The translations under genes were made by a program, and so were the position numbers. A stretch of 34,331 nt of DNA. Origin: Actinomycetota bacterium. GTDB taxonomy: Bacteria; Actinomycetota; CADDZG01; WHSQ01. The notes beneath the pieces were generated by a model that had not been told where the DNA came from, did not search any database, and saw nothing but the letters and a program-made list of their open reading frames with translations. The stretch's first letter is position 1; every line of letters begins with the position of its first letter. The DNA lies in contig WHTI01000016.1 in assembly GCA_009377815.1 (NCBI GenBank), positions 1 to 34,331 on the forward strand, written 5' to 3'. Below are positions 14,503 to 32,667 of the stretch, piece by piece.

Positions 14503-15648
14503 ATGGACGCGGAGGCGTTCTCCGAGGCGCAACGAGGGTATCTCAGGAGGCATCCAGGGGGCTACCTGGCATTCGTTCCGCCCTCCCTTCCACCGGAATT
14601 GGAGTTGGCGCCTGATCTGGTGAACGCCCTATCGGAAGCCGATCGCAACCTCGGCCTGCTCGCGGGAGCGGGGGAGTGGTTGCCCAATCCACACCTCCTG
14701 ATTCGATCGTTCGTGAAGAGAGAAGCTGTCCTATCGAGCCGGATCGAAGGGACCCAGGCTTCGATTGTCGACCTGGTTCTCTTCGAGGCTTCCCCCAGAA
14801 CGTCCACCGTGTCGGATGTGCGTGAGGTTGCCAATTACGTTCGAGCGCTGGAACTCGGAGTTCATGAGGATCGGGTGTTGCCCATCAGCTTGCGACTGAT
14901 GCGCGACCTCCACCGGGAACTGATTACCGGCATCGGAGGAGCGCACCTAACACCAGGGGAGTTCCGGACCTCACAGAATTGGATCGGCCCGCCCGGCTGC
15001 ACACTGAATCAAGCCTCGTATGTGCCGCCTCCGCCGGAAGACATGCGCGACGCGCTGGACGCTTTCGAGAAGTACCTGCACGCGAAGAGCGACTTCCCTC
15101 CGCTCATTCGTCTGGCGATCGTGCACTATCAGTTCGAGGCGATCCACCCCTTCCTGGATGGCAACGGGCGGGTGGGAAGGCTCCTTGTCACCCTCCTCCT
15201 TCACGAGTGGAGGCTGCTGCCTCAACCGCTCCTGTATCTGAGCGCGTTCTTCGAGCGTCATCGAAATGATTACTACCGACTGCTCCTTGGGGTCAGCCTC
15301 GCCGGCGACTGGGAGGAGTGGATCACGTTCTTCCTTACGGGGATCGCCGAGCAATCTGCTGACGTGGTTGAACGAGCAAGGCGATTGTTAGCTCTGAGAG
15401 AGCGTTATCGATCCGAGTTGCACACAGCCAGATCTTCAGCCCTACCTCTGAAGCTTGTTGACCACTTGTTCGAGCAGCCGGCTTTGAATCTGGCGCAAGC
15501 CCGAGAACTATTGGGCGTATCTGCCCGGGCAGCCAGCATGAATGTGCAGAAGCTCGAGGAGGCTGGGATCGTCGTAGAGGTCACGAAGAGGGCCCGCAAC
15601 CGGGTCTACGTGGCGGACGAGATCCTCGATCTCATCCGAGAGCCCTAG
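14503..15648 (+). CDS. Fic family adenylyltransferase with winged-helix tail (copy 1)
   Basis: A 381-residue Fic protein, predicted to transfer AMP (or a related nucleotide moiety) from a nucleotide to a hydroxyl side chain. The Fic core is HPFLDGNGRVGR with catalytic H215, preceded by the flap region. A self-inhibitory helix of the class II pattern S-x-x-x-E-(G/N) is present as SSRIEG (S78, E82, G83), in the Fic_N domain. The C-terminal 70 residues form a winged helix (LLGVSARAASMNVQKLEEAG) that could bind the palindrome upstream. GGAAGG precedes the ATG by about 9 nt. It is convergent with the RES gene, with a single base between stops. Target protein unknown. Confidence 0.9.
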   Translation: MDAEAFSEAQRGYLRRHPGGYLAFVPPSLPPELELAPDLVNALSEADRNLGLLAGAGEWLPNPHLLIRSFVKREAVLSSRIEGTQASIVDLVLFEASPRTSTVSDVREVANYVRALELGVHEDRVLPISLRLMRDLHRELITGIGGAHLTPGEFRTSQNWIGPPGCTLNQASYVPPPPEDMRDALDAFEKYLHAKSDFPPLIRLAIVHYQFEAIHPFLDGNGRVGRLLVTLLLHEWRLLPQPLLYLSAFFERHRNDYYRLLLGVSLAGDWEEWITFFLTGIAEQSADVVERARRLLALRERYRSELHTARSSALPLKLVDHLFEQPALNLAQARELLGVSARAASMNVQKLEEAGIVVEVTKRARNRVYVADEILDLIREP

Positions 15649-16982: not shown

Positions 16983-18329
16983 ATGAGCCCCTACATAGCG
17001 CCTCCGCCGGAAGGGTCCCCCGCACCGATCCTTGAGGGTCTGGACGAGGGCGCCTATCCAGCCTTCGTTGCTGCCATGGAAGTTACCCCCAGAGGTAAGT
17101 ACCGGCACTGGGACAATCTGCGACAGCTCAAACCGCCCAGCGGGCTTACGTCCGAGCAATGGTGGGCAGCCGTGAAGTTCGCCAGACGCTCATTGTTTCG
17201 GCAGCTCCCCCTGAAGGATGAAGGCGGTCAGAGGTTTGTGTTCACTATGCCCGATGGGGCATTGGAAGCGCTTCACTTCATCGACCAGCATGCGAGCGGG
17301 GAAATCGCCATGTCCGAGGTCGTGACGGCCGATCACGCCGCCAAGAACCGTTACTTAGTGAATTCCTTCATCGAAGAAGCAATCCGCTCCAGCCAACTAG
17401 AGGGTGCTACGACTTCCAGGGTAGTGGCCAAGGAAATGATTCGATCGGGACGACCTCCAAAGGATCGAAGTGAACAGATGATCCTGAACAACTTTCGAGC
17501 CCTCCAGTTCATGCACGAAGAGATCGGCGAGGAATTAACTCCAAGCCTCGTTTTGGAGCTGCAACGGATACTGACGGAGGAGACTCTGGATAACCCGGAT
17601 GCCGCAGGGCGGCTCCAGACTCCGGACGACGAGAGGGTTGGTGTCTTTGACGCAAGAGACGGCTCGCTCGTTCACAAGCCGCCGCCGGCCGATCAGTTAC
17701 CTGATCGACTCTCTGCCCTGTGCGCCTTTGCCAATGGCGAAGATGCTGTGGATGGGTTCCTCCACCCAGTCGTAAGAGCGATCCTTATCCACTTTTGGCT
17801 TGCCTACGATCATCCGTTCGAGGACGGAAACGGGAGGACTGCAAGAGCCCTCTTCTACTGGTCCATGAAGACTCAGGGCTATTGGCTCGCTGAATATCTG
17901 TCGATCTCGAGAATCCTGAGACAAGCTCCTTCCAAGTACAGCAACTCTTTCGTCTACACGGAGACGGATGAAAGGGACACGACGTATTTCATTCTGTATC
18001 AGCTGGATGTATTTCGCCGGGCAATCAACGAGCTACACGAGTACCTGCAGAGGAAGATCCTTGAGGTCAAGGGCTTTGAGTCGATCATCAAAGGATCCGA
18101 CAACTTCAACTACCGACAGCTTGCGCTGCTACGGAATGCAATCAGGGAACCTCACCAGCGGTACACGTTTCGATCCCACTCCTTGAGTCATAACGTCACT
18201 CGGCAAACCGCTCGAACTGATCTTCTTGCCTTGGTTAAGGCTGGGCTGCTGAGCCGCAAGAAGGTCGGGCGACAGTTTGTGTTCGAACCAACCGAGGGCC
18301 TCCCAGATCGGCTGGGAATTCTCTCTTAG
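16983..18329 (+). CDS. Fic family adenylyltransferase with winged-helix tail (copy 2)
   Basis: A 448-residue Fic protein with core motif HPFEDGNGRTAR, catalytic H277, and a class II inhibitory helix SSQLEG (S136, E140, G141). A large N-terminal region (1-100) precedes the Fic_N-like part; the C-terminal 60 residues (FRSHSLSHNVTRQTARTDLLAL) look like a winged helix. Apart from the motifs it has little similarity to the Fic protein at 14503-15648, so this is not a recent duplication. AGGAGGGG stands directly before the ATG. Promoter-proximal inverted repeats suggest autoregulation. Substrate unknown. Confidence 0.9.
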   Translation: MSPYIAPPPEGSPAPILEGLDEGAYPAFVAAMEVTPRGKYRHWDNLRQLKPPSGLTSEQWWAAVKFARRSLFRQLPLKDEGGQRFVFTMPDGALEALHFIDQHASGEIAMSEVVTADHAAKNRYLVNSFIEEAIRSSQLEGATTSRVVAKEMIRSGRPPKDRSEQMILNNFRALQFMHEEIGEELTPSLVLELQRILTEETLDNPDAAGRLQTPDDERVGVFDARDGSLVHKPPPADQLPDRLSALCAFANGEDAVDGFLHPVVRAILIHFWLAYDHPFEDGNGRTARALFYWSMKTQGYWLAEYLSISRILRQAPSKYSNSFVYTETDERDTTYFILYQLDVFRRAINELHEYLQRKILEVKGFESIIKGSDNFNYRQLALLRNAIREPHQRYTFRSHSLSHNVTRQTARTDLLALVKAGLLSRKKVGRQFVFEPTEGLPDRLGILS

Positions 18330-18618: not shown

Positions 18619-19641
18619 ATGACAGCCGACCTCGCCAAAGGGGAGTCCATACCCTGGTTGATCCGTGAGCTCCTGGACGAGCAGGGCCGCATCTCGAGTG
18701 GAGATGTCGCGGACGCAGCAGGGGTCACGCGACAGGCGGCCCACTACCACCTTCGTCGCATGGTCGAAATGGGGGAGTTGTTGGCAGTCGGAAAAGGCCG
18801 CGCCAGCCACTACATAAGGTCTTCGGTCTGGAGTGGACAGTACGAAACTCAGGGGCTCGAAGAACACCTTGTTTGGCGGGATCTGGCGGCGGCTGTTGCC
18901 GCTGTATCTAGCCTTCGAAATGAAGCTACCGCGATTGCGAGATATTCATTCACCGAGATGCTCAACAATGCGATTGATCATTCCGAGTCCGAAAGAGTCA
19001 TCGTATCGATTGGCGAATCTGGAGACTCCTTGGTCTTCACCATTACGGACGAAGGTGTGGGTGCCTTTGAACGCGTTAGGAGAACCAAGAGATTAGAGGA
19101 TCACGTCGCGGCCATACAGGAGATTGCTAAGGGCAAACTGACAACGGACCCTTCCAAGCACAGTGGGCAAGGGATCTTCTTCACATCTAAGGCTGTCGAC
19201 GTTTTCGTTCTAGTGAGCAACGGCTGGAAGTGGGTGGTTGACAACAAAAGGGGCGACCAGTCGATTTCACGCGTGCGATCCCACGCGGGCACTCGGGTTG
19301 AATTCACGATTGACCGGATGACAGACCGCTCGCTCAAATCGGTGTTCGATGAGTACACGGACGAAGCTACCTTTGCATTCGACAAGTCTCGAACCGTCGT
19401 CCGACTGTTTGAATTCGACGTTTCCTTTGTTTCTCGATCTGAGGCCAAACGCCTGACTCGAAATCTCGAGCAATTCGTCGAGGTTCTGGTCGATTTTCAA
19501 GGAGTGGACGAGATTGGGCAGGGATTCGCTGATGAGATCTTCAGGGTCTGGCAGAGGGATCATCCCGACACACGTCTTTCGCCGGTCAACATGAATCAAT
19601 CAATTGAACTCTTAGTAGAACAAGCCCGAAAGAGTCCCTAG
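18619..19641 (+). CDS. wHTH-GHKL ATPase-STAS-like (DUF4325-type) regulator
   Basis: A 340-residue three-domain protein. Residues 8-66 form a winged helix (SSGDVADAAGVTRQAAHYHLRRM). Residues about 85-240 are a GHKL ATPase like those of histidine and anti-sigma kinases: N-box FTEMLNNAIDHS (E113, N117), G1 box DEGVGAF (D144) and G2 box HSGQGIFFTSKAVD. Residues about 255-340 resemble the STAS-like domain DUF4325 (VLVDFQGVDEIGQGFADEIF). There is no phospho-acceptor His box, so it is not a classical kinase. The fusion resembles an anti-sigma kinase and its STAS antagonist on one DNA-binding chain, giving an ATP-dependent transcriptional switch (inference). Start and control are described under the promoter. 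A strong hairpin follows the gene. Confidence 0.82.
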   Translation: MTADLAKGESIPWLIRELLDEQGRISSGDVADAAGVTRQAAHYHLRRMVEMGELLAVGKGRASHYIRSSVWSGQYETQGLEEHLVWRDLAAAVAAVSSLRNEATAIARYSFTEMLNNAIDHSESERVIVSIGESGDSLVFTITDEGVGAFERVRRTKRLEDHVAAIQEIAKGKLTTDPSKHSGQGIFFTSKAVDVFVLVSNGWKWVVDNKRGDQSISRVRSHAGTRVEFTIDRMTDRSLKSVFDEYTDEATFAFDKSRTVVRLFEFDVSFVSRSEAKRLTRNLEQFVEVLVDFQGVDEIGQGFADEIFRVWQRDHPDTRLSPVNMNQSIELLVEQARKSP

Positions 19642-20245: not shown

Positions 20246-21526
20246 CTAAACCAGACCTGGGTGTGACGGACCCTCAACCGGGAATTCCCGATGGAGCCAC
20301 ATGAGGACGTCTTTACGATTCCGGATTCCTTGAGCACGAAGAATGCGAACAATGTCGGCACCGCTGATGACGACAACGGGGTGCTCATCATTTCGAAGTT
20401 CTTCGTACGCCTGTCTGGACAGGAAGGCTGTTGTGACAAGGACTCCGAACTGCCGATGTCTCAACCGCGAGATCAGCCGGGACAGTTCCCTCACTCCTAC
20501 CCCGTGCTGTGGCGAGTAGCATTTTGCTTCAAGGGCGAACTCCATACTGATTGGGTCCTCGGCAGGGCCCAGCGTGTAGAAGCCCACGGCGTCACGGCCT
20601 CCGTCCACTGATCTGCGGGTCATCCTGTATTCACTAACGCGTGGGGACTGCATTCTCCATAGGTGGGCGGCGCACGACTCGAATTCGAAAGGATCGTTGA
20701 TGAAGTACTCATGAATGGACTGCAGGATCGACCAATCTGCTTTCCGGCTGGGGAGCTGCTCGAGTTTCGATCTGATCTGGATCGTCCGAGGAGCTCGAAG
20801 GGTGGCGTATCTACCTGACATCACCCACTCGATCCATGAACTAGGTGCAGAGGGATGAAGAGGGGTCGCATCGAGGAGGGCACTGAGCCACTCTCGAGGG
20901 ACGACCGGTTCGTCCAGGATCGAGAACGTGGCTCTGTAGTTCTGAAAACGCCTCCCTTGATGGGTTCGCCAGACGGCGACGAGATCGCTACTTGGTCCTA
21001 TACCTTCTCCTCCAGGAACGGCAAGGCCCCTGAATTGGACGTTCCGGCGCTCACCCGTCCTCTCGAATATGAAGAATGGCGGAACCTCGGCCCGCAATGA
21101 TGGATCCGCGTGAATCGAGTCGAAAACCTGCCTGAGGAGCTCGTTTCCCCCAAGTGACGTCTCGTGAATCGCTCTTCCCGGTTTGCGGTTGTCCCCGTAG
21201 TAGTAAAAGAGGCCTGTTTCCGGTTCCAAGATGTCGGGCCAGTCTGGGTTATCGCCCGTTGTGTACAGAACAGCGAAGGCAAAACCGTCCCTGCGAGACG
21301 TCCGCTTCTTTCTAAACCCTCCTTGGTTAGCAACACGTAGCATCTTGGTCAGTGGATCTGAAGTGATTGAGCGGTCGTGGCCCCCTTCGTACACTGCGTC
21401 AACAACCAAATCGCAGTCGTCAAGAGCGTCGAACGGGACACCAGGGCCGTGGGTGGGAGGTGCCGCAAGGGCGGACTGGGCAAGATTCGTGCGGGTTTCG
21501 TCCATCTGGTCAACGCCTCTCAACAT
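20246..21526 (-). CDS. AspBHI/Mrr-like modification-dependent restriction endonuclease
   Basis: A 426-residue nuclease. The C-terminal third has the Mrr-type PD-(D/E)XK core: VDGGRDAVGFYTLG with the Asp near 308, then FALEAKCY giving E333 and K335, followed by GVRELSRLISRLRHRQFGVLVTTAFLS. The N-terminal 200 residues resemble the AspBHI N-terminal (SRA-like) region that recognises modified cytosine: TGLFYYYGDNRKPGR and PPFFIFERTGERRNVQFRG are characteristic. Such enzymes cut DNA carrying 5mC at a set distance. Possible starts are GTG 21559, ATG 21526 and ATG 21505; AAAGGA 8 nt before 21526 decides. The gene diverges from vsr. Its relation to the nearby 5mC methyltransferase is discussed in the findings. 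Confidence 0.82.
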   Translation of the reverse strand: MLRGVDQMDETRTNLAQSALAAPPTHGPGVPFDALDDCDLVVDAVYEGGHDRSITSDPLTKMLRVANQGGFRKKRTSRRDGFAFAVLYTTGDNPDWPDILEPETGLFYYYGDNRKPGRAIHETSLGGNELLRQVFDSIHADPSLRAEVPPFFIFERTGERRNVQFRGLAVPGGEGIGPSSDLVAVWRTHQGRRFQNYRATFSILDEPVVPREWLSALLDATPLHPSAPSSWIEWVMSGRYATLRAPRTIQIRSKLEQLPSRKADWSILQSIHEYFINDPFEFESCAAHLWRMQSPRVSEYRMTRRSVDGGRDAVGFYTLGPAEDPISMEFALEAKCYSPQHGVGVRELSRLISRLRHRQFGVLVTTAFLSRQAYEELRNDEHPVVVISGADIVRILRAQGIRNRKDVLMWLHREFPVEGPSHPGLV

Positions 21527-21649
21527 CGCTCCGATCCTTTCGCAACATTGATGGCACACTATCGATGGCCCGTGGCAAAGGCCAGGGATTTCAATTCCGG
21601 AACGGAATCAGTGAGGAACATACGAAAGGAGAGTCCTTAGAATCGGCTG

Positions 21650-22075
21650 ATGATTTCCAAGAGACCGGCAGCGATGAACAGTCTCGTGTCTGCCCAAATG
21701 AGCAGGATGCCTCGGTCGGCGACGGGCCCAGAGATGGCGCTAAGAAAGGCGTTTCACAGTGCAGGTCTCAGGTTCACAGTCAACAGAAGTGACCTCCCCG
21801 GGAAGCCTGACATCGTCCTGTCTAAGGCGCGCATAGCGATCTTTGTTGATGGGTGTTTTTGGCATGGCTGTGCGGAGCACGGGACCCTTCCAAGAAACAA
21901 CCGAGAGTGGTGGGCCAAGAAGCTGGAAGGCAATCGAGAGAGGGACGAGCGCAAGGACGCCGAACTGGCGGACATCGGATGGGTCGCCCTCCATTTCTGG
22001 GAGCACGAGGACGTGTCGCAGGCGGCGCGTATAGTGCGTGGACTGTGGATGCAACGAACGGGCCGCGCCGGCTGA
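21650..22075 (+). CDS. vsr: Very short patch repair endonuclease
   Basis: A 141-residue Vsr protein, which nicks DNA 5' to the T of T:G mismatches produced by deamination of 5-methylcytosine. The family motifs are clear: SRMPRSATGPEMALRKAFHSAG, LPGKPDIVLSKARIAIFVDGCFWHGC with catalytic Asp in PDIV, the zinc-site residues around HGCAEHGTLP, and WWAKKLEGNRERDERKDAELADIGW. The usual second His of CFWHGH is Cys here. The start is uncertain: ATG 21650 has no clear ribosome-binding site, and ATGs at 21674 and 21698 are also in frame; homology begins near residue 17. It is followed after 65 nt by the MORC-like ATPase gene and serves the methyltransferase encoded downstream on the other strand. Confidence 0.92.
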   Translation: MISKRPAAMNSLVSAQMSRMPRSATGPEMALRKAFHSAGLRFTVNRSDLPGKPDIVLSKARIAIFVDGCFWHGCAEHGTLPRNNREWWAKKLEGNRERDERKDAELADIGWVALHFWEHEDVSQAARIVRGLWMQRTGRAG

Positions 22076-22140: not shown

Positions 22141-23430
22141 GTGGCTCGACAGGGCCGGCGCACTATTGACGTAACCCCCTCAGCGAGGCGTCTCACCGAA
22201 TCTCTCAGAGACATCGGATACGACTTCGTCTCGGCGTTGGCGGACATTGTCGACAACAGCATCAGTGCTGACGCCTCGAGGGTCGACATCCTCTTGGAGT
22301 TCGATGGAGCCGATTCTCGTGTTGTCATCGCCGACGATGGAATTGGCATGAGCCGACGGGACCTAACGGAAGCGCTGCGTTTCGGGACGCGACGCGACTA
22401 CAAACCCGACGATCTAGGCCGATTTGGTTTGGGACTGAAGACGGCTTCGATTTCCCAGTGCCGACGGTTGACGGTTATGTCAAGGATGGCGCTCGTCTAC
22501 AAGAGGGTGGCCGGAAGCACCCTTGATCTTCGGATTGTTGCGGAGAGGGATAGATGGTCGCTGGTCGAGCCGGATCCGGAGCTTCGTTCACGCTCAATGG
22601 AGTGGTTGGCAGATGCCCCCGGAACTGTCGTCATTTGGGACGTCCTTGATCGGGTGCTGCCGGCCAAGAGATCCGACGGTGCTTGGGCTCGAAGGCGACT
22701 GGAACAATTGGCTGTTAGGGCTCGGGAGCACTTGGGCATGGTGTTCCACCGATACATCGAAGGCGTAAGCCTAGACGTCCCTCTGGTGATCACGATCAAC
22801 GGCGAGAAGGTCCTCCCTTGGAATCCGTTCGCTCCGGAGGAACAAGATTCTCTCATCCTGAGTGAACAGCAGTACGAGGTCAGCTCGGACGGAGTAGGTG
22901 GAGTCGTCAGAGCGAAGTCTTGCGTTCTCCCCGCTCGAGGGCAGTTTTCAAGTCACGATGAGTTTGAGAGACTGGGCGGCCCAAGAAAGTGGAATCGGCA
23001 GCAAGGCTTCTACATTTACCGAGCGGATCGCATGATTCAGAGCGGTGGATGGTCTGGAATCCGTGCTGCCGATGAACACACCAAACTTGCTCGGATCGCG
23101 TTGGACTTTGATACTGACCTTGACAGTTTGTTCAGGATCAATGTGTCCAAGATGCGAGCGTCTCTTCCGAGTGAGATTCGAAGTCTGATCGAACGTCAAG
23201 TTAATGAAGTGTGTCACGCGGCCGATCGCCGATATCGCGGCACGAATTCACTTGGACACTCTGCTGAGACTTTGGGAGCCGAACCGCGCAGTAGGACTAG
23301 TGAGCCCGGAAGGCTTGGTGCTGGCTTGATCGCGGCAGCGATGGAGGTGGGGGAGTATGAAGCCCTTGACCGAATTGGGAAAACACTCAGGAGACGTTCT
23401 CCGGAGTTGGCTGACCAGCTGGGTTGGTGA
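22141..23430 (+). CDS. MORC/MutL-like GHKL ATPase
   Basis: A 429-residue ATPase of the type found beside Dcm, Vsr and Z1 genes and related to eukaryotic MORC ATPases. Motif I is SALADIVDNSISADAS (N39; the usual catalytic Glu four residues earlier is Asp, D35), motif II IADDGIGMSRRD (65-70) and motif III DDLGRFGLGLKTASISQC (93-100). A S5-fold middle region follows (about 200-340), with LVITINGEKVLPWNPF and RKWNRQQGFYIYRADRMI. Such proteins are thought to act as ATP-driven clamps on DNA. The GTG at 22141 has AGGAGG 6 nt upstream. The last 44 nt are antisense to the end of the methyltransferase gene. Confidence 0.88.
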   Translation: MARQGRRTIDVTPSARRLTESLRDIGYDFVSALADIVDNSISADASRVDILLEFDGADSRVVIADDGIGMSRRDLTEALRFGTRRDYKPDDLGRFGLGLKTASISQCRRLTVMSRMALVYKRVAGSTLDLRIVAERDRWSLVEPDPELRSRSMEWLADAPGTVVIWDVLDRVLPAKRSDGAWARRRLEQLAVRAREHLGMVFHRYIEGVSLDVPLVITINGEKVLPWNPFAPEEQDSLILSEQQYEVSSDGVGGVVRAKSCVLPARGQFSSHDEFERLGGPRKWNRQQGFYIYRADRMIQSGGWSGIRAADEHTKLARIALDFDTDLDSLFRINVSKMRASLPSEIRSLIERQVNEVCHAADRRYRGTNSLGHSAETLGAEPRSRTSEPGRLGAGLIAAAMEVGEYEALDRIGKTLRRRSPELADQLGW

Positions 23431-25360
23431 AGGAAAGTTGCAGAGGTCCCGTCGCCGATTCTTTGCATCCGTCTCTCAATGGGCAACGGGCGCACTCGGG
23501 CGTGCCCGGACCGCAGATTCCATTGGCAAGCTCCATGAGCGCCAGATGTGCTCCGTGAGCCGAATCGCCCCCACCAATCATGCGTGCTACGGCAAGGCGA
23601 CCTTCAGACATCCTGTTCACCTTGTCGACGTTCAGTCCTTGGAAGCGTGAAGCGACTCTAAGCACCCCATACTTGGCTAGCACGACATCGTCAGGGCAAT
23701 CGAGAGAGACACGCGAGGCTAGGTCGGCAATCACTTGTGTGACATTGGGTGCTTGCAGTAACTCCGAGGCGGGTGACTCGGGCTCCAACGCGCCAGGGTG
23801 CTTTGCGAACCATTTGGCCGTCTGCAACAACAGTTTGAACCGAGCCGAACGTCCGCAGACCATTGTTAGCCGACCCAGTGCCTTGCTTGACTCAAGCGTC
23901 GCTTGCGGTGTGTCCAGGTGTTTTGTTGCGGTCCATGCTAATTGAATCAGCTCTTCACCAAGCCGGTTCCACAAGAGCTCAGACTGGATCACCAGCCACT
24001 TGGAGTTACTGGATAGCCATGGAACTCGGGTGGTTTCTCTGGCTAGGAACCAGCTCGAAAGTGCCCCAGAGACGACTTGCGTGGTCATGCTGGCCTTGTC
24101 GGCCCTGCGGAGGCTCACTAGCACAGCCTTGCCCAACACTTCTCCCAATGCTGGAGGAACCGCGTTCCCAATCTGACGGAACGCCGAGGATGGTGATCCA
24201 GCAAAACGAAACCAGTCTGGGAATGTCTGAAGGCGGGCCGCTTCTCTGACTGACAAGGTCCTGTCTTGGTGTGGGTGGATGTACCAGTAACCATCCTTGG
24301 CAATATGAGCCGTGATCGTCCGACTCAGATCGTTCTCATCAAGCCGTTTGTACTTGTCGTCAAAGATGTCGTCTCGGTATCGCTTGAGCGATGGATCGAG
24401 ATCCGAGTACCTAGTGGTGTGATCCATTTGGGCAAATGCAGCAGCGTCGTCCTCTCTAACCGGACGGGTGATGTGATCAAACACCTTGTGGACGTCTTCA
24501 GATTTGACTCCCTCACGTGCCATCTTCTGATATTCAGTGACGGGCTTGTCATACGCTGCCCAACCCTTGGCTCCTCCTTCGGGCCGCCATCCCCCTTCGA
24601 TCTCCGGAAGGTCGCCGATAGCGTTCTGGACTGTGACTCTTGACCGCGATTCCTCCGGCCAATGAAAGATCAGGCCGTCCCGCAAAGCAACCAGTATCAG
24701 TCTCTGACGGAACTGTGGGACTCCGTATCGGAAGGTATCAATGAGCCGGTATCGAACCGCGTACCCAAGCTCTTCTAAAGTCTCGGACATCGTTCTGAGG
24801 ATCAGCATCTCTTTGTCCAAGGCCATATCGGGAACGTTTTCCATTAGCACGGCCTCGGGTCGAGACAACGCAACAATGCGGATGAATGACTGCCATAAGT
24901 CCCTGCGCCCGTCGTGTTGCTCTCGTCGTCCTGTGCGGACTAGGTCCCGGATCATTGATCGTCCGGCTCTCGAAAAAGGCTGACAGGGGGGGCCGCCGGC
25001 GACCAGGCTGATTCCTGCCTTCTCGATCATGTCCGCAACCAGTTCAACATTGGCTTCTTCGGCCATATCTAGATTCATGGACAAACCTGGGGTGTGCGCG
25101 CTGTGAGTCTCGAGCGCCTCCTTGTCGTTGTCGATGCCCAAGAGGACCTCATAACCGGAGCGCTGGAGGCCTAGGCTCAATCCTCCCGCGCCGCAAAAGA
25201 GGTCTGCTGCAAACGGGCCATCGAGGCGTTTGCTCAAAGCAACCATCTCGTCAGGGGTTTGGCAAGCGTCTGGATGCGTCGGGAGCTCCACAAAAGGTCC
25301 CCTGATCTGCTTAACCGCGTAGACTTTGGAAGCTTCTCTCCCTTGTTTCCTGTTCACCAT
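23387..25360 (-). CDS. dcm: C5-cytosine DNA methyltransferase fused to a MutY/EndoIII-like FeS domain
   Basis: A 657-residue fusion. Residues about 48-420 are a C5-cytosine methyltransferase: SAM-binding DLFCGAGGLSLGL, catalytic Cys126 in GGPPCQPFSRAG, ENVPD at 174-178, YGVPQFRQRLI, and the final motif RQIGNAVPPALG. Residues about 430-640 look like a HhH-GPD glycosylase: SSWFLARETTRVPW, QSELLW, a degenerate helix-hairpin-helix LLQAPNVTQVIADLA and the [4Fe-4S] loop C616-x6-C623-x2-C626-x5-C632, the exact EndoIII/MutY spacing. At the usual catalytic Asp (DGNV) stands K563 (AKYGV). The start ATG has no clear ribosome-binding site. It is divergent from the Z1 gene, with 6 bp between starts. Target sequence unknown. 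Confidence 0.88.
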   Translation of the reverse strand: MVNRKQGREASKVYAVKQIRGPFVELPTHPDACQTPDEMVALSKRLDGPFAADLFCGAGGLSLGLQRSGYEVLLGIDNDKEALETHSAHTPGLSMNLDMAEEANVELVADMIEKAGISLVAGGPPCQPFSRAGRSMIRDLVRTGRREQHDGRRDLWQSFIRIVALSRPEAVLMENVPDMALDKEMLILRTMSETLEELGYAVRYRLIDTFRYGVPQFRQRLILVALRDGLIFHWPEESRSRVTVQNAIGDLPEIEGGWRPEGGAKGWAAYDKPVTEYQKMAREGVKSEDVHKVFDHITRPVREDDAAAFAQMDHTTRYSDLDPSLKRYRDDIFDDKYKRLDENDLSRTITAHIAKDGYWYIHPHQDRTLSVREAARLQTFPDWFRFAGSPSSAFRQIGNAVPPALGEVLGKAVLVSLRRADKASMTTQVVSGALSSWFLARETTRVPWLSSNSKWLVIQSELLWNRLGEELIQLAWTATKHLDTPQATLESSKALGRLTMVCGRSARFKLLLQTAKWFAKHPGALEPESPASELLQAPNVTQVIADLASRVSLDCPDDVVLAKYGVLRVASRFQGLNVDKVNRMSEGRLAVARMIGGGDSAHGAHLALMELANGICGPGTPECARCPLRDGCKESATGPLQLSFTNPAGQPTPENVS

Positions 25361-25366
25361 CTGCTA

Positions 25367-28057
25367 ATGATAGGAGCTTGTCGCCCGAAGGAATGGGATT
25401 CTGAGCGGACGGATGGAGAGCGGGGTGGGACTCTGAGTTTCGACGAAGAGGACGTTGCTGCTGGCTTGAACTCAGCCTACGAGTTGCTCTTGGGGGTTGT
25501 GCACAAAGGGAACCCAGCTGAGCGAGCTGCCGGAGATTTGGCCCGAGCGGGCGTAGCGAAGGCTCTCATCGACGGCGCGCTCGAGCGCTATCGGGAGCTC
25601 GCGAAGGGCGTGAAGAGTCTGCGTTACTCGGGGGGTTTGGAGAGTGGTCTAGGAGAAGCTTGGTACACGGGGCCCCGTGAGGGGGACATCAATTGGCCGT
25701 CTCTCGAGCAGACTCTGGCACAGGAAGGATTCCCAAGACCGGCCTTACAATCCCTGGACGACGTCTCTACAAGAATTGTGGGCAATCTTCCTCCCGTATG
25801 GAGAGCACAGTTCAGCGGCCGGGGACTTGTACTCGGGTATGTGCAGAGCGGGAAGACGTCCAACTACACAGCAGTCATTGCGAAAGCAGCGGATGCGGGA
25901 TACCGCTTGTTCATCGTTCTCTCGGGCATCCACAACAACCTGAGGCGACAGACTCAGGCGAGGCTGGATCGGCAGCTCGTTGTCCCTCAGAAAGGGCTCT
26001 GGATTCAGCTTACGACTGAGGAGAAAGACTTCGGCGATCCTGGAAACGCCGATGCCCTCCTGACATTGACTACTCGCAAGGTGCTCTGCGTAGTTAAGAA
26101 GAACAAGACGAGGCTGGAGAACCTGCTCCGATGGTTGGGTAGCGCCAATCCTTCAGCGATGGCTAGGTGCCCGATCCTTGTAATTGACGATGAGGCTGAT
26201 CAGGCGAGCATCAATACGGGAGACCCCGAGGATCGAACCCGAATCAACAAACTCCTTCTCCAGCTGCTAAGCCAAGAGAGAGCTGCCTATATCGGTTACA
26301 CAGCAACTCCGTATGCGAATCTCTTCATTGATCCCACCTTTGAACAGGACCTCTACCCCAAGGACTTCATAATTGATCTGCCTCACCCGGAAGGCTATTT
26401 CGGACCAGAGCGGATTTTCGGCCGGGAGAGGCTTACAGCGGACGATGAAGAGGCGGATTTCGACGGAATGGATGTCGTCCGTATCGTGAGTGAGGATGAG
26501 GCAAAATTGCTGAGACCTCCTCGCAAGAAGGAGCTTAGAAAGGTCTTTGAACCAGAGTTGACTCCTTCTCTGGCGGACGCGATTCGGTATTTCTTTTTGG
26601 CAACGGCGGCTCGACGCGCCCGTGGTCAGACCAAAGCGCATTCATCCATGCTCATCCACACGACTATGTACACAGATATTCACGAGGCCTTCCGAGACAC
26701 TGTACGCGGGGAAATCCTGAGCATCCGAAAACGCTTGGAGGCTTCCACGGAGAAGTCGCATCTCTTGAATCTGTGGACGCGGGAGATGAAGCTTGTAGCC
26801 GGCGCTACTTCAGAGAAGGCGGTCGATTTCGAGGACGTCTACAAGCTCTTACCTGATGTATTGAATGAAGCTTCTGTTGTGGTTGATAACTACCGGAGTG
26901 TGGAGAGACTGGACTTCAGTACTGGCCCGCAGACGGTCCTAGTGATAGGCGGAAACACGCTGTCGCGCGGCCTGACTTTGGAGGGCCTCATTGTTAGCTT
27001 TTTCCTTCGAACAGCCAGCGCCTACGATACGTTGCTCCAAATGGGTCGGTGGTTCGGTTACCGTGCCGGCTACGAGGATCTTCCCCGTCTGTGGATGACA
27101 TCGGAGCTGCAGAAGGACTTCATGTTCCTAAGTACGGTGGAGGAAGAGATTCGTCTGGATGTTCAGCGTTATGAGGTCGAGGATAGGACGCCTCTAGAGC
27201 TGGCGACGCGAATTAGAACGCATCCCAAGCTCGCCATCACCAGTGCCCTCAAGATGCAATCGGCGGTTCCCGCTAAGGTGAGTTATAGCGATCGCCGCCT
27301 TCAGACCATTCTTTTCCGGCATAGGGATAGCGCCTGGTTGATTCAGAATCAGGTGGCAGCGCGTGAGCTGTTGATCCAGGCTCAAGCATCCAGCGAGGTC
27401 AAGTACGTCGGCGCCTCGAAGCTTCTCATCGAGGATGTGGAAGTGGCCCCAATACTTGAGATGTTGGGCAGCTACCAGTTTCATCAAGAGAGTCGTGATC
27501 TCAACTCATCTCTGATCAGCGCGTACATTCAACGTCAGAACGAGCTCGGGGATCTGCTCACATGGAATGTCATCGTGATGAGTCGTGCGGACATGAAGCG
27601 TGGGGAAATTGACCTCGGGCTTGGTCATCCGATCGGCCTAATGAACAGGGCAAGAATGGCTAACAGTCCGAAGGACAGAGCGAACATAAAGTCGCTCATG
27701 TCCAAACCGGACCGTGTATCCGATCTCGGCATACCCGAGAGCGAAATACAGAAAATGAACGACGAGGAGCTCCAAGCGCAGCGTTCCAAGACGAAGCCTG
27801 GCGTGGGCTTGATTCTGCTCTATCCAATCGATCGGAACTCCGAACCCCTTCATGCGAGCGACGGGCGCCAGCAGCGGGAGAATCTTGAGGCTGCTGAGGA
27901 TGTAATTGGGCTGGGACTTGTCTTCCCGAAGGTTCGTCAGAAGGAGACCGAACTCGAGTACATGTCGGTTGATCTCTCCTCCTTGGCCCGAGAGGAAGAA
28001 GAGTTTGACCTTGAAGCCTCGGATAGCGAGCCGAGTCTGAATGAGGTTGAAGATTGA
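25367..28057 (+). CDS. Z1 domain superfamily II helicase-like protein
   Basis: An 896-residue protein. Helicase motifs are Walker A GYVQSGKTSNY (157-164), the DEAD-like box LVIDDEADQ (274-278), the TAT motif YIGYTATPYANLF, and, within the second lobe, GGNTLSRGLTLEG and LLQMGRWFGYRAGY (558-565), all typical of Z1. The Z1 family is known from restriction-like loci with MORC-like ATPases and PD-(D/E)XK nucleases; it probably moves along or remodels DNA. The frame is open to 25259, but that overlaps the methyltransferase gene; ATG 25367 is the first start outside it and lacks a ribosome-binding site, so a later TTG is possible. The stop overlaps the next start by 4 nt (TTGA). Confidence 0.9.
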   Translation: MIGACRPKEWDSERTDGERGGTLSFDEEDVAAGLNSAYELLLGVVHKGNPAERAAGDLARAGVAKALIDGALERYRELAKGVKSLRYSGGLESGLGEAWYTGPREGDINWPSLEQTLAQEGFPRPALQSLDDVSTRIVGNLPPVWRAQFSGRGLVLGYVQSGKTSNYTAVIAKAADAGYRLFIVLSGIHNNLRRQTQARLDRQLVVPQKGLWIQLTTEEKDFGDPGNADALLTLTTRKVLCVVKKNKTRLENLLRWLGSANPSAMARCPILVIDDEADQASINTGDPEDRTRINKLLLQLLSQERAAYIGYTATPYANLFIDPTFEQDLYPKDFIIDLPHPEGYFGPERIFGRERLTADDEEADFDGMDVVRIVSEDEAKLLRPPRKKELRKVFEPELTPSLADAIRYFFLATAARRARGQTKAHSSMLIHTTMYTDIHEAFRDTVRGEILSIRKRLEASTEKSHLLNLWTREMKLVAGATSEKAVDFEDVYKLLPDVLNEASVVVDNYRSVERLDFSTGPQTVLVIGGNTLSRGLTLEGLIVSFFLRTASAYDTLLQMGRWFGYRAGYEDLPRLWMTSELQKDFMFLSTVEEEIRLDVQRYEVEDRTPLELATRIRTHPKLAITSALKMQSAVPAKVSYSDRRLQTILFRHRDSAWLIQNQVAARELLIQAQASSEVKYVGASKLLIEDVEVAPILEMLGSYQFHQESRDLNSSLISAYIQRQNELGDLLTWNVIVMSRADMKRGEIDLGLGHPIGLMNRARMANSPKDRANIKSLMSKPDRVSDLGIPESEIQKMNDEELQAQRSKTKPGVGLILLYPIDRNSEPLHASDGRQQRENLEAAEDVIGLGLVFPKVRQKETELEYMSVDLSSLAREEEEFDLEASDSEPSLNEVED

Positions 28058-29064
28058 AGTTGACAAGAAGCGAGCTGGCTGATGTCTGGTCAGTGCTTGA
28101 AGGTCTGGCAACCGATCCTGCAGAGATCAAGGTCAAAGGCGTTGGACTCGGGACCGCTCAAGGTGAGGTTCGATTGGGGAGGGACGGCTCCGGTCGCCTT
28201 CATCTGCTGGTCCCGATCGGACTCGAAGAACCTCTCAACGAGGACAAGCGATCCTCAGGCGTCCACATCTTGAAGGTCGTTCTTCTGGAAGAAGGCAATG
28301 AGGTTGCATTTGGAGATGTGGTTTGTCTACTGCCGCATCTGGCGGACATCTTTCATCGTCTGGCGGCTGAAATGGTTGAGGCAATCGACGACAATCCCGA
28401 GTCACCACTACCGGCCTGTCGCGCCGTCCTTGATCAATGGCGGGAGCTCCTTGACCGTGCCGGATCCAAGTTCAGCAGGAACGCGCTTGCGGGACTCTAC
28501 GGCGAGCTATGGCATCTCCGGCTCCTCCTGGAGGAAGACCCGGCCAGAAGACTCGATGTTTGGCGAGGGTGTCGCGGAGAGATCATCGATTTTCGGAGAG
28601 GATCCTCGTTCCTTGAGGTCAAGGTGTCTTTCCGGAGAGAGGGCCGGGTGATCGAGATCCATGGTTTGCGGCAGCTCGAGCGGCCCGAAGGGACGGACTT
28701 GTTTCTTTCGTATCTGGGCGTAGAGGAATCGCCGCGGGGAGAGTCAGTTCCGGATCTCATTGAGGCAATCAAGGGCCTCGGTGCCTCTTCAGGAGAGTTC
28801 ACTGAGTTGCTGCAAGCGGTCGGGTATGAGGAGAGCGATGCTGATCAATTCGAGGCCGTTCGGTTTTCCGTCTTGGAACACCGGTTGTACGAAGTTGATG
28901 ACGACTTTCCAAGAATTACACCGGAGCTCTTCTTCGGCGGCGAGCAACCAGCTGGAATTGTCGATGTCAACTACTGGATAGATTTGACCAACGAACCCCC
29001 TATCCCCTTGGCGGCTTCGGCCGCGTTGGAGCTGTTCAAACGAATGGCGGGTGAAGGCGCCTGA
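28054..29064 (+). CDS. PD-(D/E)XK motif protein (DUF4420-type), putative nuclease
   Basis: A 336-residue protein of the family that accompanies Z1 helicases. A conserved helix GLYGELWHLRLLLEE carries E151, then W170, and the core EIIDFRRGSSFLEVKVSF supplies D179, E188 and K190, matching a PD-(D/E)XK active site. The C-terminal third is acidic, with LEHRLYEVDDDFPRIT and VDVNYWIDLTN. It is expected to cut DNA as the nuclease of the system. The start is TTG at 28054 within the Z1 stop; another TTG at 28060 is possible. Its stop overlaps the putative CTG start of the next gene. Confidence 0.82.
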   Translation: MKLTRSELADVWSVLEGLATDPAEIKVKGVGLGTAQGEVRLGRDGSGRLHLLVPIGLEEPLNEDKRSSGVHILKVVLLEEGNEVAFGDVVCLLPHLADIFHRLAAEMVEAIDDNPESPLPACRAVLDQWRELLDRAGSKFSRNALAGLYGELWHLRLLLEEDPARRLDVWRGCRGEIIDFRRGSSFLEVKVSFRREGRVIEIHGLRQLERPEGTDLFLSYLGVEESPRGESVPDLIEAIKGLGASSGEFTELLQAVGYEESDADQFEAVRFSVLEHRLYEVDDDFPRITPELFFGGEQPAGIVDVNYWIDLTNEPPIPLAASAALELFKRMAGEGA

Positions 29065-31016
29065 GGAAACTCGATTGGTTCGCTGAGCCCTTCCCGCCCC
29101 ATGGAGCACTTGCGGCCGAGGGATTCAAGAATGTACTTGGCCGCCCTCGGATTGACCCCCTTATCGTCTTTGTGCGGGAGTTAGTGCAAAACAGTTGGGA
29201 TGCGCGCTCTGGCCATCGGCAGGTTGTCTTCTCCCTCGACCTTGTGTCTCTAGGGGAGCGCCGGAGGGCCATTCTCGACAAGACCGTCTTTGCTGAAAGG
29301 CCAAGGTCAGGATTGCCAATTTCCGAAGCTCTGAGCCGTGAGGATCTCCAACTCTTGATCGCGACTGACTCTGGAACCATGGGGTTGGGGGGGCCGGTTC
29401 GTGCGGACCGGTCGCCTGCCCTGGGTTCGACAACAGATTTCGTTGACCTCGTTTTCAAGGTCGGTCAGCCACCCGAAAAAGAGCTCGGAGGTGGCACCTA
29501 TGGTTTCGGGAAGACGATCAGTTATCTCATGAGTGAGGCCAGTGCGATTCTCGTCTATACACGCGCTGCTCTGGATGAAGGCTATGAGAGTCGACTGATC
29601 GGGGTCGGTCTCGGAGACCAGTATTCAGAACGGGGTCGGACCTTTACCGGGCGGCATTGGTGGGGACGGCGCAGGGGCGAAGCAATCGAACCTGTCATCA
29701 ACAGGGGAGCTGATCAGCTTGCCGTTGCTCTTGGATTCCAAGAGTTTCCCGAGGATGAAACTGGCACCGCGATCGGGGTGATAGGTCCTCGATTCGGCGA
29801 CGCCGCCCCAGAGGAGGCCATGAGTTTCATGGCCGAGGCGGTCATGTGGAACTTCTGGCCCAAGTTGGTTCCAGACCATCGAGGGCGGCGAGCGATGCGG
29901 TTCAACTTCTCTATAGATGGCCAGAAGGTCGACGTCCCACCTCTAGCCGAGCACCGGGGCCTCGAGACTTTCGCCGATGCCGTTCGCACCATTAGAGAAC
30001 TGGAGAGCGGCCAACGGGGCAAGAGCACCGTTGAAGACATTCCACTGTCGAAGTCAATCGAGATCCGATCCAAGAGACCCGACACTCATTTGGGATGGTT
30101 GGTACTGAATAGATCCTTCGTGCCCTTGGACGGCATCACAGAGGAGGAGGAGGAGGATTCGTCGATCGACGAGGATGAGGCTGATTCCGCTTCGTTTCAG
30201 GATTCGCGACCCATTGGCCCTCGCACCCATCACGTTGCACTCATGCGACAAGCGGAACTCGTTGTTGAGTACATGGAAGGACCAACCCTGCCTTCAAGCA
30301 ACATCCAGTGGGCCGGCGTGTTTAAGGCATCATCCGAAGTCGATAAAGCTTTCGCAGCCTCGGAACCACCAACACACGATGCTTGGTCCCCTGATTTGGT
30401 TGCTGACAAGAGACTCAAGCGTCTGGTGAATGTCGCATTAAGGAGAATCAGGCAGGCAATCAGAGTGGAGTTCTCAGGCGGGGCCTTTGCTGCGCCTCAG
30501 AAAGACCGACGTCCAGCGGTGGTTATCGCTGACGCACTTTCTGGACTCATCTCTCCGGCTCGCGGCTCGGGTTCGCGATCATCGGGGGGAGGGGTTGGAC
30601 TCGGCCCAGCAGGTGATGGCATCGGCGAAGCTGCTCGGGGCAGGCGCTCTAGTTCCATGGGACCCAAGCCTCAGATCGTGCAGAGGTCCGTTGAATTCGA
30701 GCATGTTGACAGCGAATCGCGTCTGACCCTCATTGAGTTTGTTGTTCAGGGTGTAAGGGACGAAGGAATCCGCGTCAATGTGAGTGCAGGAGTGGCCACG
30801 CACGACTCCGGAACGGTTGAGAAGGAGCCACCCGCCGGGGAGCAATCAACCCAGATCGTGGGCTTCCGAGACGTGTCCGGAGGTCAAGATCGACTTGGCG
30901 AGAGTCTGGATCTCGACGCAGATGACGCAAAGAGACCGTGGATTGTGATGATCAGATCGCCAAGGGAAGTTGCGATCTCGGCTGACATCAGGCTCTCTCC
31001 GTTGGTAGTCGAATGA
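29061..31016 (+). CDS. Second GHKL ATPase, apparent CTG start
   Basis: A predicted 651-residue ATPase. From the first conventional start (GTG 29172) the protein would begin inside motif I. The frame is open back to 29055 and encodes RKLDWFAEPFPPHGALAA before IDPLIVFVRELVQNSWDA, so the ATP-binding fold needs an earlier start. CTG 29061, overlapping the previous stop as CTGA, is the only near-standard codon. Motifs: E40 and N44 (RELVQNSWDA), D103 (ATDSGTMGLGGP) and 145-151 (GGGTYGFGKTISYL). An acidic EEEEEDSSIDEDEAD stretch lies near residue 355, and Gly/Ser-rich linkers near 500-530 separate a C-terminal beta-rich part. It is unlike the MORC-like protein at 22141 outside the motifs. Confidence 0.72.
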   Translation: MRKLDWFAEPFPPHGALAAEGFKNVLGRPRIDPLIVFVRELVQNSWDARSGHRQVVFSLDLVSLGERRRAILDKTVFAERPRSGLPISEALSREDLQLLIATDSGTMGLGGPVRADRSPALGSTTDFVDLVFKVGQPPEKELGGGTYGFGKTISYLMSEASAILVYTRAALDEGYESRLIGVGLGDQYSERGRTFTGRHWWGRRRGEAIEPVINRGADQLAVALGFQEFPEDETGTAIGVIGPRFGDAAPEEAMSFMAEAVMWNFWPKLVPDHRGRRAMRFNFSIDGQKVDVPPLAEHRGLETFADAVRTIRELESGQRGKSTVEDIPLSKSIEIRSKRPDTHLGWLVLNRSFVPLDGITEEEEEDSSIDEDEADSASFQDSRPIGPRTHHVALMRQAELVVEYMEGPTLPSSNIQWAGVFKASSEVDKAFAASEPPTHDAWSPDLVADKRLKRLVNVALRRIRQAIRVEFSGGAFAAPQKDRRPAVVIADALSGLISPARGSGSRSSGGGVGLGPAGDGIGEAARGRRSSSMGPKPQIVQRSVEFEHVDSESRLTLIEFVVQGVRDEGIRVNVSAGVATHDSGTVEKEPPAGEQSTQIVGFRDVSGGQDRLGESLDLDADDAKRPWIVMIRSPREVAISADIRLSPLVVE

Positions 31017-31912
31017 GCCGGTTGACTATTCTTCCCCATCTTCAGACTCAAGCTGTCCGTCCCGGGCCTTGGACGATCAGCATCAATGAGCAGCTCGTCA
31101 TTGATGAAGTGGCGAAGAGTTGGGACTATGAAACGCCGATCAGAGTTGCATGCTCGGTTGACATTCCTTCGGATGAGATCCGAGCGGATTGCGCTCTGGC
31201 CCCGAGCGACCAATTTGGACTGGTCGTCAGCTGGCGCTCATCATCGACCGGTCTTAAGCAGCGCGCTGACGTAATTGATGTCAGTGGGGGAGGGTCGCCT
31301 GTTGTTTCCATTGACCTTGACCCGGCGCGTGTGGGGGGCATCCTCACGCTTTCGAGAAGGCTGGTGCTCTTAGGCGAAGGTAGAGGGAGCAATCCCGATT
31401 CGCCCACCAGGCCCGGAAGCATCCTCTGGCAGGAGGCTCCCCATGACAGCAGGAAACTTGTTCTGGAAGGTGACGCCTCACGATTTCCCACCGAGGTTGT
31501 GGATTTTTCTGGGGGTTACGTCGGTGAACCTGAGGCCGTCTGGGCTCTGTACTTGGATACCGAGGACCTCGAGGCGTCCGCGATGAAGGCTATTCGCCTC
31601 TACGTGAATGCTGGGCATCCGGCTGTCAGAACACTGATGGACGTCGGTGAGGAGCCAATCTCAGCGGCCATTCGGTCAACCCTGATCTGGGATGTTGCTA
31701 GGCAAATGGTCCTGGCCGCGGTGGGGAACGATGAGTTCGTTGAAAACCATGGGCGCTTCTCGGGTGGGTCAATAGGAGAGGTTCTTGAAGCTGTGATCGA
31801 GCAGTTCTGGCCGGATCGGGACATTCTCTCTTTGCGGGCACTATGCGAGCAGGATTCGGCTCGGTTTGAGTACGAACTCCAGGCAAGAATGCGCCTCTTG
31901 GAGGGCCTCTGA
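31013..31912 (+). CDS. Uncharacterised protein of the Z1 operon (299 residues)
   Basis: The ATG overlaps the upstream stop by 4 nt (ATGA), so it is coupled to the GHKL gene. Residues 1-130 are strand-rich (VACSVDIPSDEI, QFGLVVSWRSSSTG, SPVVSIDL) and look like one or two beta sandwiches. The C-terminal half is helical with AIRLYVNAGHPAVRTLMD and SLRALCEQDSARFEYELQARMR. No catalytic motif, Cys pair, membrane segment or signal peptide is seen. I do not recognise the family. The unbroken coupling suggests a structural partner of the ATPase. Confidence 0.7.
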   Translation: MSRLTILPHLQTQAVRPGPWTISINEQLVIDEVAKSWDYETPIRVACSVDIPSDEIRADCALAPSDQFGLVVSWRSSSTGLKQRADVIDVSGGGSPVVSIDLDPARVGGILTLSRRLVLLGEGRGSNPDSPTRPGSILWQEAPHDSRKLVLEGDASRFPTEVVDFSGGYVGEPEAVWALYLDTEDLEASAMKAIRLYVNAGHPAVRTLMDVGEEPISAAIRSTLIWDVARQMVLAAVGNDEFVENHGRFSGGSIGEVLEAVIEQFWPDRDILSLRALCEQDSARFEYELQARMRLLEGL

Positions 31913-32667
31913 TGGCACATGTCTGGCCGAGACTGCCCCACGGAATGGCGATGGAGCTGCTCTCGGAAGTCACCGCAAGCCACCTTGGAGCCCTGCTTGA
32001 GGGATCAGGTTTGGACCACCAGCTCGCGGCCCCCGTGGCGACTGGGGGAACTCCTGTGCCTTCGGACCACATTGAGAAGGTCCAAGAGTCGGTCAGAGGT
32101 TTGGCTGAGCAACATGGATGGCCCGAATCCTTGTCCCGTACCTCAGTTAGCGGGTTCGACCAACCGTGCTCGGTGCTCCTTCACGATCTCATGGACATCG
32201 TCCCCGCTGATGCTGCTCATGAAGGAGTCTGGTCCTTTCTCTCTCTTGTCGTGCTGCCAGATGTATCCAAATGGAGATTTCCGGATGCTGCGAGAGACAG
32301 GATGATCGGTGCGCCGCGCAATGTCTTCCGGCGGCTCTGGTGGAGAGCGGAGGTCTTGGGGAGGGATGCCCTGACAGGTGAGCATGCGTTGGGCGAGGAC
32401 GAACTAGTTCAGATCATGGAAAGACCCTCGTTGAGCGCCGACTACCGAGTGGCTAGAGAGATCGCAAACGTCGTCATGTCGAGAGCGCCCCAAGCCGGAT
32501 TGGCGCGATCGGAGTTGATGCGTGACTTGGCAAAGCGTGTTCTCCGACTGATGCCAGTGATCTCGCTCGATGCCTTGGAGGATCACGAGCTCGCGTATGA
32601 GATTGAGACATGTTGTGCACTCTCGGCCGAGCAGCTGATCTCGGTGGAAAGCAATATGGGCACGTGA
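31912..32667 (+). CDS. Uncharacterised protein, possibly DUF6339-like (251 residues)
   Basis: This last gene of the rightward operon starts at the ATG that shares its A with the previous stop. It is mostly helical. The block VWSFLSLVVLPDVSKWRFPD followed by RNVFRRLWWRAEVLG reminds me of proteins annotated DUF6339 that occur near Z1/DUF4420 genes; this is from memory and uncertain. No known catalytic residues are visible. The C-terminal LRLMPVISLDALEDHELAYEI is also helical. A short hairpin and the convergent HEPN-like gene follow. Confidence 0.68.
   Translation: MAHVWPRLPHGMAMELLSEVTASHLGALLEGSGLDHQLAAPVATGGTPVPSDHIEKVQESVRGLAEQHGWPESLSRTSVSGFDQPCSVLLHDLMDIVPADAAHEGVWSFLSLVVLPDVSKWRFPDAARDRMIGAPRNVFRRLWWRAEVLGRDALTGEHALGEDELVQIMERPSLSADYRVAREIANVVMSRAPQAGLARSELMRDLAKRVLRLMPVISLDALEDHELAYEIETCCALSAEQLISVESNMGT

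What the first reader, a model, noticed from the sequence alone, without database searches (positions are those of the whole stretch)
23387..25360. 5mC methyltransferase fused to an iron-sulphur glycosylase-like domain that lacks the catalytic Asp
Seen directly: a complete C5-methyltransferase (Cys126, ENV, final RQIGNAVPP) continues in the same frame into about 220 residues ending in C-x6-C-x2-C-x5-C, the [4Fe-4S] loop spacing of EndoIII/MutY. The residues preceding it follow the HhH-GPD layout, but K563 stands where the catalytic Asp is expected and the helix-hairpin-helix Gly residues are replaced. Known: Mig-type T:G glycosylases accompany some methyltransferases, and Vsr does the same job; here Vsr is also present. 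Inference: the fused domain may be a mismatch or damage reader, or a redox/DNA-binding module, rather than a glycosylase.
Basis: partly seen in the sequence, partly recalled or inferred. Interest (0 to 1): 0.85.

Follow-up and report, generated by a model that had tools for sequence, protein, structure and literature searches.

The report
DNA methyltransferase carrying dead repair-enzyme domain
A bacterial enzyme that marks DNA with methyl groups carries, fused to its end, a DNA-repair enzyme domain that keeps its predicted iron-sulphur site but has lost its cutting machinery; relatives with the machinery intact exist, and the dead domain has nonetheless been conserved, usually near a second repair enzyme (Vsr) that could do the same job.

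Summary
Window 23387-25360(-) encodes a complete C5-cytosine methyltransferase fused in frame to a [4Fe-4S] HhH-GPD domain of the MutY/Mig type. The predicted fold of the tail (pLDDT 91) best matches thymine-DNA glycosylase 1kea (Mig). K563 sits at the catalytic Asp; the HhH glycines and the catalytic Tyr/Lys position are also changed. It is not unique: about 50 homologous MTases carry the tail, mostly in Actinomycetota. All lack the Asp except a Chloroflexota clade (L073, L079, L148), whose fused domain has intact Asp, Tyr, GVG hairpin and FeS ligands; a close relative (L082) has the intact glycosylase as a separate neighbouring gene. So the tail most likely descends from an active T:G glycosylase. 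The dead tail is not junk: dN/dS is mostly 0.05-0.28, FeS cysteines are kept in nearly all, and the two dead clades share a new motif (N-R-x3-G-R-x7-G). Vsr lies in 34 of 49 dead-tail loci but 0 of 4 intact ones. The locus is a Z1/DUF4420/MORC restriction-like system related to Mza. Best reading: Vsr replaced the glycosylase, and the domain survives as a non-catalytic module of the MTase. Its exact role is inferred, not shown.

The parts
23387..25360 (-). 657-aa fusion gene: C5-MTase plus degenerate FeS HhH-GPD tail
24125..25213 (-). C5-methyltransferase domain, about residues 50-412, all catalytic motifs present
   Evidence: PF00145 E=5.9e-59; motif positions
23441..24082 (-). HhH-GPD/[4Fe-4S] tail domain, about residues 427-640
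   Evidence: AlphaFold model pLDDT 90.7, top fold match 1kea; TIGR01084
23978..23980 (-). E461, equivalent of the MutY catalytic Glu; kept in 16 of 20 window-type tails, mostly Ala in the other dead clade
23708..23752 (-). former helix-hairpin-helix, residues 537-551 (APNVTQV...); GVG and Tyr/Lys lost
23672..23674 (-). K563 at the catalytic Asp position
23573..23617 (-). conserved N582-R583-x3-G587-R588-x7-G596 motif shared by the dead clades and not a feature of the active ones
23465..23515 (-). four FeS-ligand cysteines 616, 623, 626, 632
21650..22075 (+). Vsr T:G mismatch endonuclease
   Evidence: PF03852 E=1e-21; PADLOC Vsr
22141..23430 (+). MORC-type GHKL ATPase (MzaB-like); its 3' end overlaps the MTase 3' end by 44 bp
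   Evidence: PADLOC MzaB E=9e-64
25259..28057 (+). Z1-domain helicase-like protein (MzaC-like); the listed start overlaps the MTase start and the true start may lie further downstream
   Evidence: PF10593 E=1e-65; MzaC
28054..29064 (+). DUF4420 PD-(D/E)XK nuclease-like protein (MzaD-like)
   Evidence: PF14390 E=3e-49; MzaD
29172..31016 (+). 614-aa protein conserved in one form of the system (N-terminus resembles a GHKL ATPase by eye only)
   Evidence: conserved synteny; no Pfam or NCBIfam hit
31013..31912 (+). 299-aa conserved system protein, function unknown
31912..32667 (+). 251-aa conserved system protein, weak DUF6339 similarity

Best explanation
The tail is a pseudo-glycosylase. An active Mig/MutY-type thymine-DNA glycosylase, of the kind that repairs T:G mismatches left when 5-methylcytosine deaminates, was joined to the MTase of a Z1/DUF4420/MORC restriction-like system. 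In the lineage leading to the window the system came to carry Vsr, which acts on the same lesion, and the fused domain lost its catalytic Asp, Tyr and DNA-gripping hairpin. The domain was kept, probably with its FeS cluster, because it had become part of the MTase: a folded C-terminal subunit that stabilises or positions the enzyme or docks partner proteins. Shown by computation: homology and fold, loss of catalytic residues, intact relatives, purifying selection, Vsr association. Inferred: activity of the intact relatives, the order of Vsr gain and Asp loss, and the structural or docking role.
For: Fold of the tail: pLDDT 90.7; 49 PDB matches at E<=0.001, the first 1kea (Mig), then MutY and EndoIII. 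Asp absent from all 48 dead fused tails aligned (window included), with K, R, T, S, G, N or V in its place, but present with Tyr, GVG, Glu and FeS ligands in L073, L079 and L148; L079's domain hits 1kea at E=5e-29. L082: a Z1/DUF4420/MzaE system with a separate intact glycosylase beside a tail-less MTase. MTase tree: Chloroflexota clade (100/100) sister to 46 dead-tail MTases, whose grouping has 95/95 support. Purifying selection: tail dN/dS 0.05-0.28 in 11 pairs, equal to the MTase part in several. The two dead clades share N582, G587, R588 and G596 at 90-100%, unlike active forms. Vsr in 34 of 49 dead-tail loci versus 0 of 4 intact; in 42 of 44 dead-tail genomes versus 1 of 4 intact (Fisher p=0.002); background 45 of 199 in the phylum and 24 of 148 in Dehalococcoidia. 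Full-length model pTM 0.88, consistent with firm packing of the two parts.
Against: The intact cases form one clade, so the Vsr correlation is phylogenetically a single contrast, and absence of Vsr in Dehalococcoidia is common anyway (24 of 148 have it). Fifteen dead-tail loci have no Vsr in the fetched flanks (some contigs are short), and two such genomes (L066, L067) have none at all. E461 persists in 16 of 20 window-type tails, which a purely structural domain would not obviously need. Domain packing rests on pTM only; no PAE or coordinates were available. Cluster occupancy is untested.
Confidence: 0.62

Rival explanations
1. Mismatch or methylation reader: the dead domain still binds T:G or 5mC sites without cutting and hands them to Vsr and the MORC (MutL-like) ATPase, coupling methylation, repair and defence.
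For: Vsr and MORC are encoded near the MTase in most loci; E461 and R568/R572 are retained in the window clade; MutL influences Vsr in known short-patch repair (background knowledge; abstract of PMC6116569).
Against: Hairpin glycines, wedge position and Tyr/Lys position are lost as well as the Asp; the tail is roughly neutral, and acidic in some members (L042: 29 K+R versus 38 D+E).
Confidence: 0.2
2. The domain is still a glycosylase using other residues, as in the crenarchaeal HhH-GPD protein with Ser at the Asp position.
For: Sis-HhH-GPD is active with Ser152 at this position through E134 (PMC11754123); E461 is kept in the window clade.
Against: The hairpin, Tyr/Lys position and Asp have all changed, the replacement varies widely (K, R, T, S, G, N, V), and the other dead clade lacks even the Glu.
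Confidence: 0.07
3. Redox or iron sensor: the FeS cluster reports oxidative state or DNA integrity and tunes methylation or system activity.
For: The four cysteines are invariant in nearly all tails although the active site is gone.
Against: Cysteines are lost in L064, L066, L067, L080 and L081 while the MTase survives; the cluster is structural in most HhH-GPD enzymes (background knowledge).
Confidence: 0.08
4. Decaying remnant with no function.
For: Tails evolve faster than the MTase in several pairs; some have lost the cluster or are truncated (L040, L060, L064/66/67).
Against: dN/dS well below 1, four invariant cysteines and a new motif shared across phyla.
Confidence: 0.05

Closest known systems
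Mig.MthI thymine-DNA glycosylase (PDB 1kea)
   Same: Best fold match of the tail; best sequence match of the intact Chloroflexota version; a G-T mismatch repair enzyme, known to accompany an MTase (background knowledge).
   Different: Stand-alone and with intact catalytic residues; here fused to the MTase and without Asp, Tyr and HhH glycines.
MutY / endonuclease III (HhH-GPD with [4Fe-4S])
   Same: Fold and FeS loop.
   Different: No catalytic Asp, no Lys/Tyr, no GVG; no C-terminal NUDIX-like domain as in MutY.
Putative Z1/DUF4420/C5-MTase defence system type I (PMC9523054)
   Same: Z1 protein, PD-(D/E)XK protein, cytosine MTase, three further genes and an associated repair endonuclease; the window matches this description.
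   Different: The section read does not mention the glycosylase-like tail or its loss of catalysis.
MORC/paraMORC restriction systems of Iyer et al. 2008 (PMC2292703)
   Same: MORC with cytosine MTase, Vsr and helicase/nuclease genes.
   Different: A term search of the paper found no HhH, EndoIII or glycosylase.
MzaABCDE
   Same: MzaB-, MzaC- and MzaD-like neighbours.
   Different: No MzaE hit among the window genes tested; mzaA is a sigma factor (PMC9523054), not a fused MTase.
Sis-HhH-GPD (PMC11754123)
   Same: HhH-GPD protein without the usual Asp.
   Different: Demonstrated glycosylase using E134; not fused to an MTase.

Membership tests
C5-cytosine DNA methyltransferase (PF00145) | Whole-domain match with PPCQ, ENV and GNAVPP motifs | tested here: met
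HhH-GPD/MutY-EndoIII-Mig fold | Two-lobed helical fold of this superfamily | tested here: met
HhH-GPD/MutY-EndoIII-Mig fold | C-x6-C-x2-C-x5-C ligands | tested here: met
HhH-GPD/MutY-EndoIII-Mig fold | Bound [4Fe-4S] cluster | not testable with these tools
   needs spectroscopy of purified protein
Active HhH-GPD DNA glycosylase | Catalytic Asp | tested here: not met
   K563; absent in all dead-clade tails
Active HhH-GPD DNA glycosylase | HhH hairpin G-h-G and Lys/Tyr | tested here: not met
   NVTQV 539-543
Active HhH-GPD DNA glycosylase | Base excision activity | not testable with these tools
   needs an assay
Pfam HhH-GPD (PF00730) | Score above the gathering cut-off | tested here: not met
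   no hit for the window tail; only the FeS motif at E=0.036, below its cut-off
Z1/DUF4420/C5-MTase type I system (PMC9523054) | Z1, DUF4420 and C5-MTase core plus three further genes | tested here: met
   identity of the three further genes with those of the paper was not checked
MzaABCDE | AIPR protein MzaE | tested here: not met
   no MzaE hit in the window proteins scanned
MzaABCDE | MzaB, MzaC and MzaD homologues | tested here: met

The most novel reading that the evidence does not exclude
A methyltransferase-tethered, non-cutting mismatch sensor: the pseudo-glycosylase recognises deaminated (T:G) or methylated target sites and recruits Vsr and the MORC ATPase, so that repair and antiviral discrimination run through one complex.
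Probability: 0.18. Interest if true: 0.85.

Novelty: new variant of a known kind. Interest (0 to 1): 0.62.

Why it matters
Cells with 5-methylcytosine must repair its deamination product. Here the two known bacterial answers, a Mig-type glycosylase and Vsr, meet in one family of loci: glycosylase as a separate gene, glycosylase fused and intact, and glycosylase fused but dead, mostly with Vsr alongside. That makes swapping of repair strategies directly testable, gives a conserved pseudo-glycosylase to study, and suggests an unrecognised subunit in a widespread uncharacterised defence-like system.

Tried and rejected
Viral contigs: no relative of the tail (fold search in viral proteins gave only weak glycosylase matches). 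tblastn of the tail against plasmids and phages found mainly ordinary MutY and unannotated MutY-like frames; L003 is an ordinary MutY. Literature searches for an MTase-glycosylase fusion found none, but only open-licence papers are held. Rejected: assembly artefact (about 50 homologues), a conserved Asp elsewhere in the alignment (none found), a fold unrelated to HhH-GPD. A tail tree agrees with intact fused forms lying between stand-alone enzymes and dead tails, but its branches are long.

Full report
What is there. The ORF at 25360-23387 (-) encodes 657 residues in one frame. Residues 52-412 are a C5-cytosine methyltransferase (PF00145 E=5.9e-59; TIGR00675) with PPCQ (Cys126), ENV and RQIGNAVPP in place. 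The remaining ~250 residues hold C616-x6-C623-x2-C626-x5-C632. Pfam does not recognise HhH-GPD there, but NCBIfam mutY matches 434-637 at E=1.9e-5, phmmer finds MutY and Mig structures at E=0.001-0.006, and a family profile that includes active relatives finds them at 1e-36 to 1e-35.

Fold. AlphaFold on the tail with 43 family rows gave mean pLDDT 90.7 and pTM 0.82. Foldseek ranks the thymine-DNA glycosylase 1kea first (E=2e-6, TM 0.63/0.72), followed by MutY and EndoIII.

Family. A scan of about 85,000 species genomes, plus phylum and class searches, yielded the 53 loci analysed here, 52 of them with an MTase carrying a tail. They lie mostly in Actinomycetota, with members in Chloroflexota, Acidobacteriota, Cyanobacteria and one contig labelled Rhodobacteraceae. 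The remaining fetched loci are plain MTases without a tail.

Active site. Aligned with a MutY, the catalytic Asp is K in the window and R, T, S, G, N or V in the other dead tails (48 in all). The exceptions are L073, L079 and L148 (Chloroflexota), which have Asp, Tyr, GVG, Glu and the FeS cysteines; L079's domain matches Mig best (E=5e-29). L082, in the same clade by MTase, has a tail-less MTase with a separate intact glycosylase upstream, plus Z1, DUF4420 and MzaE genes. Other MTases in Chloroflexota, Thermus and Halomicrobium also sit beside stand-alone intact glycosylases. That the intact forms are active is inferred from residues, not assayed.

History. In the MTase tree the Chloroflexota clade (100/100) is sister to 46 dead-tail MTases, which group together with 95/95 support; three cyanobacterial MTases, also with dead tails, fall outside with weaker support. 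Because a full set of active-site residues is unlikely to be regained, an active ancestor is the simplest reading, with inactivation at least twice if the cyanobacterial placement holds. Whether fusion preceded the L082 arrangement is open. The tail tree is compatible, with long branches.

Still selected. Nei-Gojobori dN/dS of the dead tails is 0.05-0.28 in eleven pairs (not all independent), from below the MTase value to about 2.7 times it, and 0.36 in a pair that has also lost the cysteines. Across the two large dead clades (20 and 21 tails) all four cysteines and R568 are invariant, and N582, G587, R588 and G596 are 90-100% conserved; the N...G-R...G pattern is not a feature of the active enzymes. 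Cysteines are lost in L064, L066, L067 and in the Prochlorococcus tails L080 and L081; L040 and L060 are truncated.

Vsr. Vsr lies in the fetched locus of 32 of 44 dead tails with cysteines, 2 of 5 without, and 0 of 4 intact cases. Genome-wide it is in 42 of 44 dead-tail genomes and 1 of 4 intact ones, there on another contig. Background is 45 of 199 in the phylum and 24 of 148 in Dehalococcoidia. Fisher p=0.002 treats genomes as independent, which they are not: the intact genomes form one clade, so this is one evolutionary contrast. The window's genome has one other place resembling the domain (C286, E=3e-6), a separate 323-codon frame not examined.

Setting. Around the gene lie Vsr, a MORC-type ATPase, Z1, DUF4420 and three conserved genes. 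PADLOC names MzaB-, C- and D-like proteins; no MzaE was found. The set fits type I of the putative defence system of PMC9523054 and the MORC systems of PMC2292703; neither mentions this domain in the passages searched.

Mechanism. I commit to a former T:G glycosylase whose repair role passed to Vsr and which remains as a non-catalytic, probably FeS-bearing part of the MTase. The homology, loss of residues, intact relatives and selection are computed results. The takeover by Vsr and the structural or docking role are inference. The strongest rival is a non-cutting mismatch sensor; residual catalysis (compare Sis-HhH-GPD, PMC11754123) is possible but unlikely.

Noticed in passing
window 20246-21559 (-): An AspBHI-type modification-dependent restriction enzyme (PF18062 + Mrr_cat; PADLOC mREase_II E=2e-158) sits beside the 5mC methyltransferase system; it was not found in the other family loci. 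Whether it could cut the host's own methylation is unclear.
   Followed up: partly
window 14503-15648 and 16983-18329 (+): Two Fic-domain proteins close together upstream of the system.
   Followed up: no
window 18619-19641 (+): Protein combining HTH, HATPase and DUF4325 (STAS-like) regions.
   Followed up: no
L064, L066, L067: MTases in Propionibacteriaceae/Microbacterium whose tails have lost all FeS cysteines and sit with a large GHKL protein but no Z1 or DUF4420 gene in the fetched flanks; tail evolution is faster (dN/dS 0.36).
   Followed up: partly
L060:9932-11870: Acidimicrobiaceae homologue whose tail appears split by a frame change into two ORFs.
   Followed up: no
L125:5035-5712, L126:3998-4750, L128:4121-4828, L149-L152: Intact Mig-like glycosylase genes adjacent to C5-MTases on Thermus and haloarchaeal plasmids and in Chloroflexota; the plasmid copies are annotated hypothetical or not listed.
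   Followed up: partly
alignment A4, window residues 295-360: The region between the MTase core motifs (likely target recognition) is strongly conserved across phyla, suggesting one shared recognition site.
   Followed up: no
L124:3895-5820: Synechococcus elongatus plasmid pIITB6_1 carries a fused member (WP_338438709.1) with FeS cysteines but no Asp, near a homologue of the window's 614-aa protein.
   Followed up: partly
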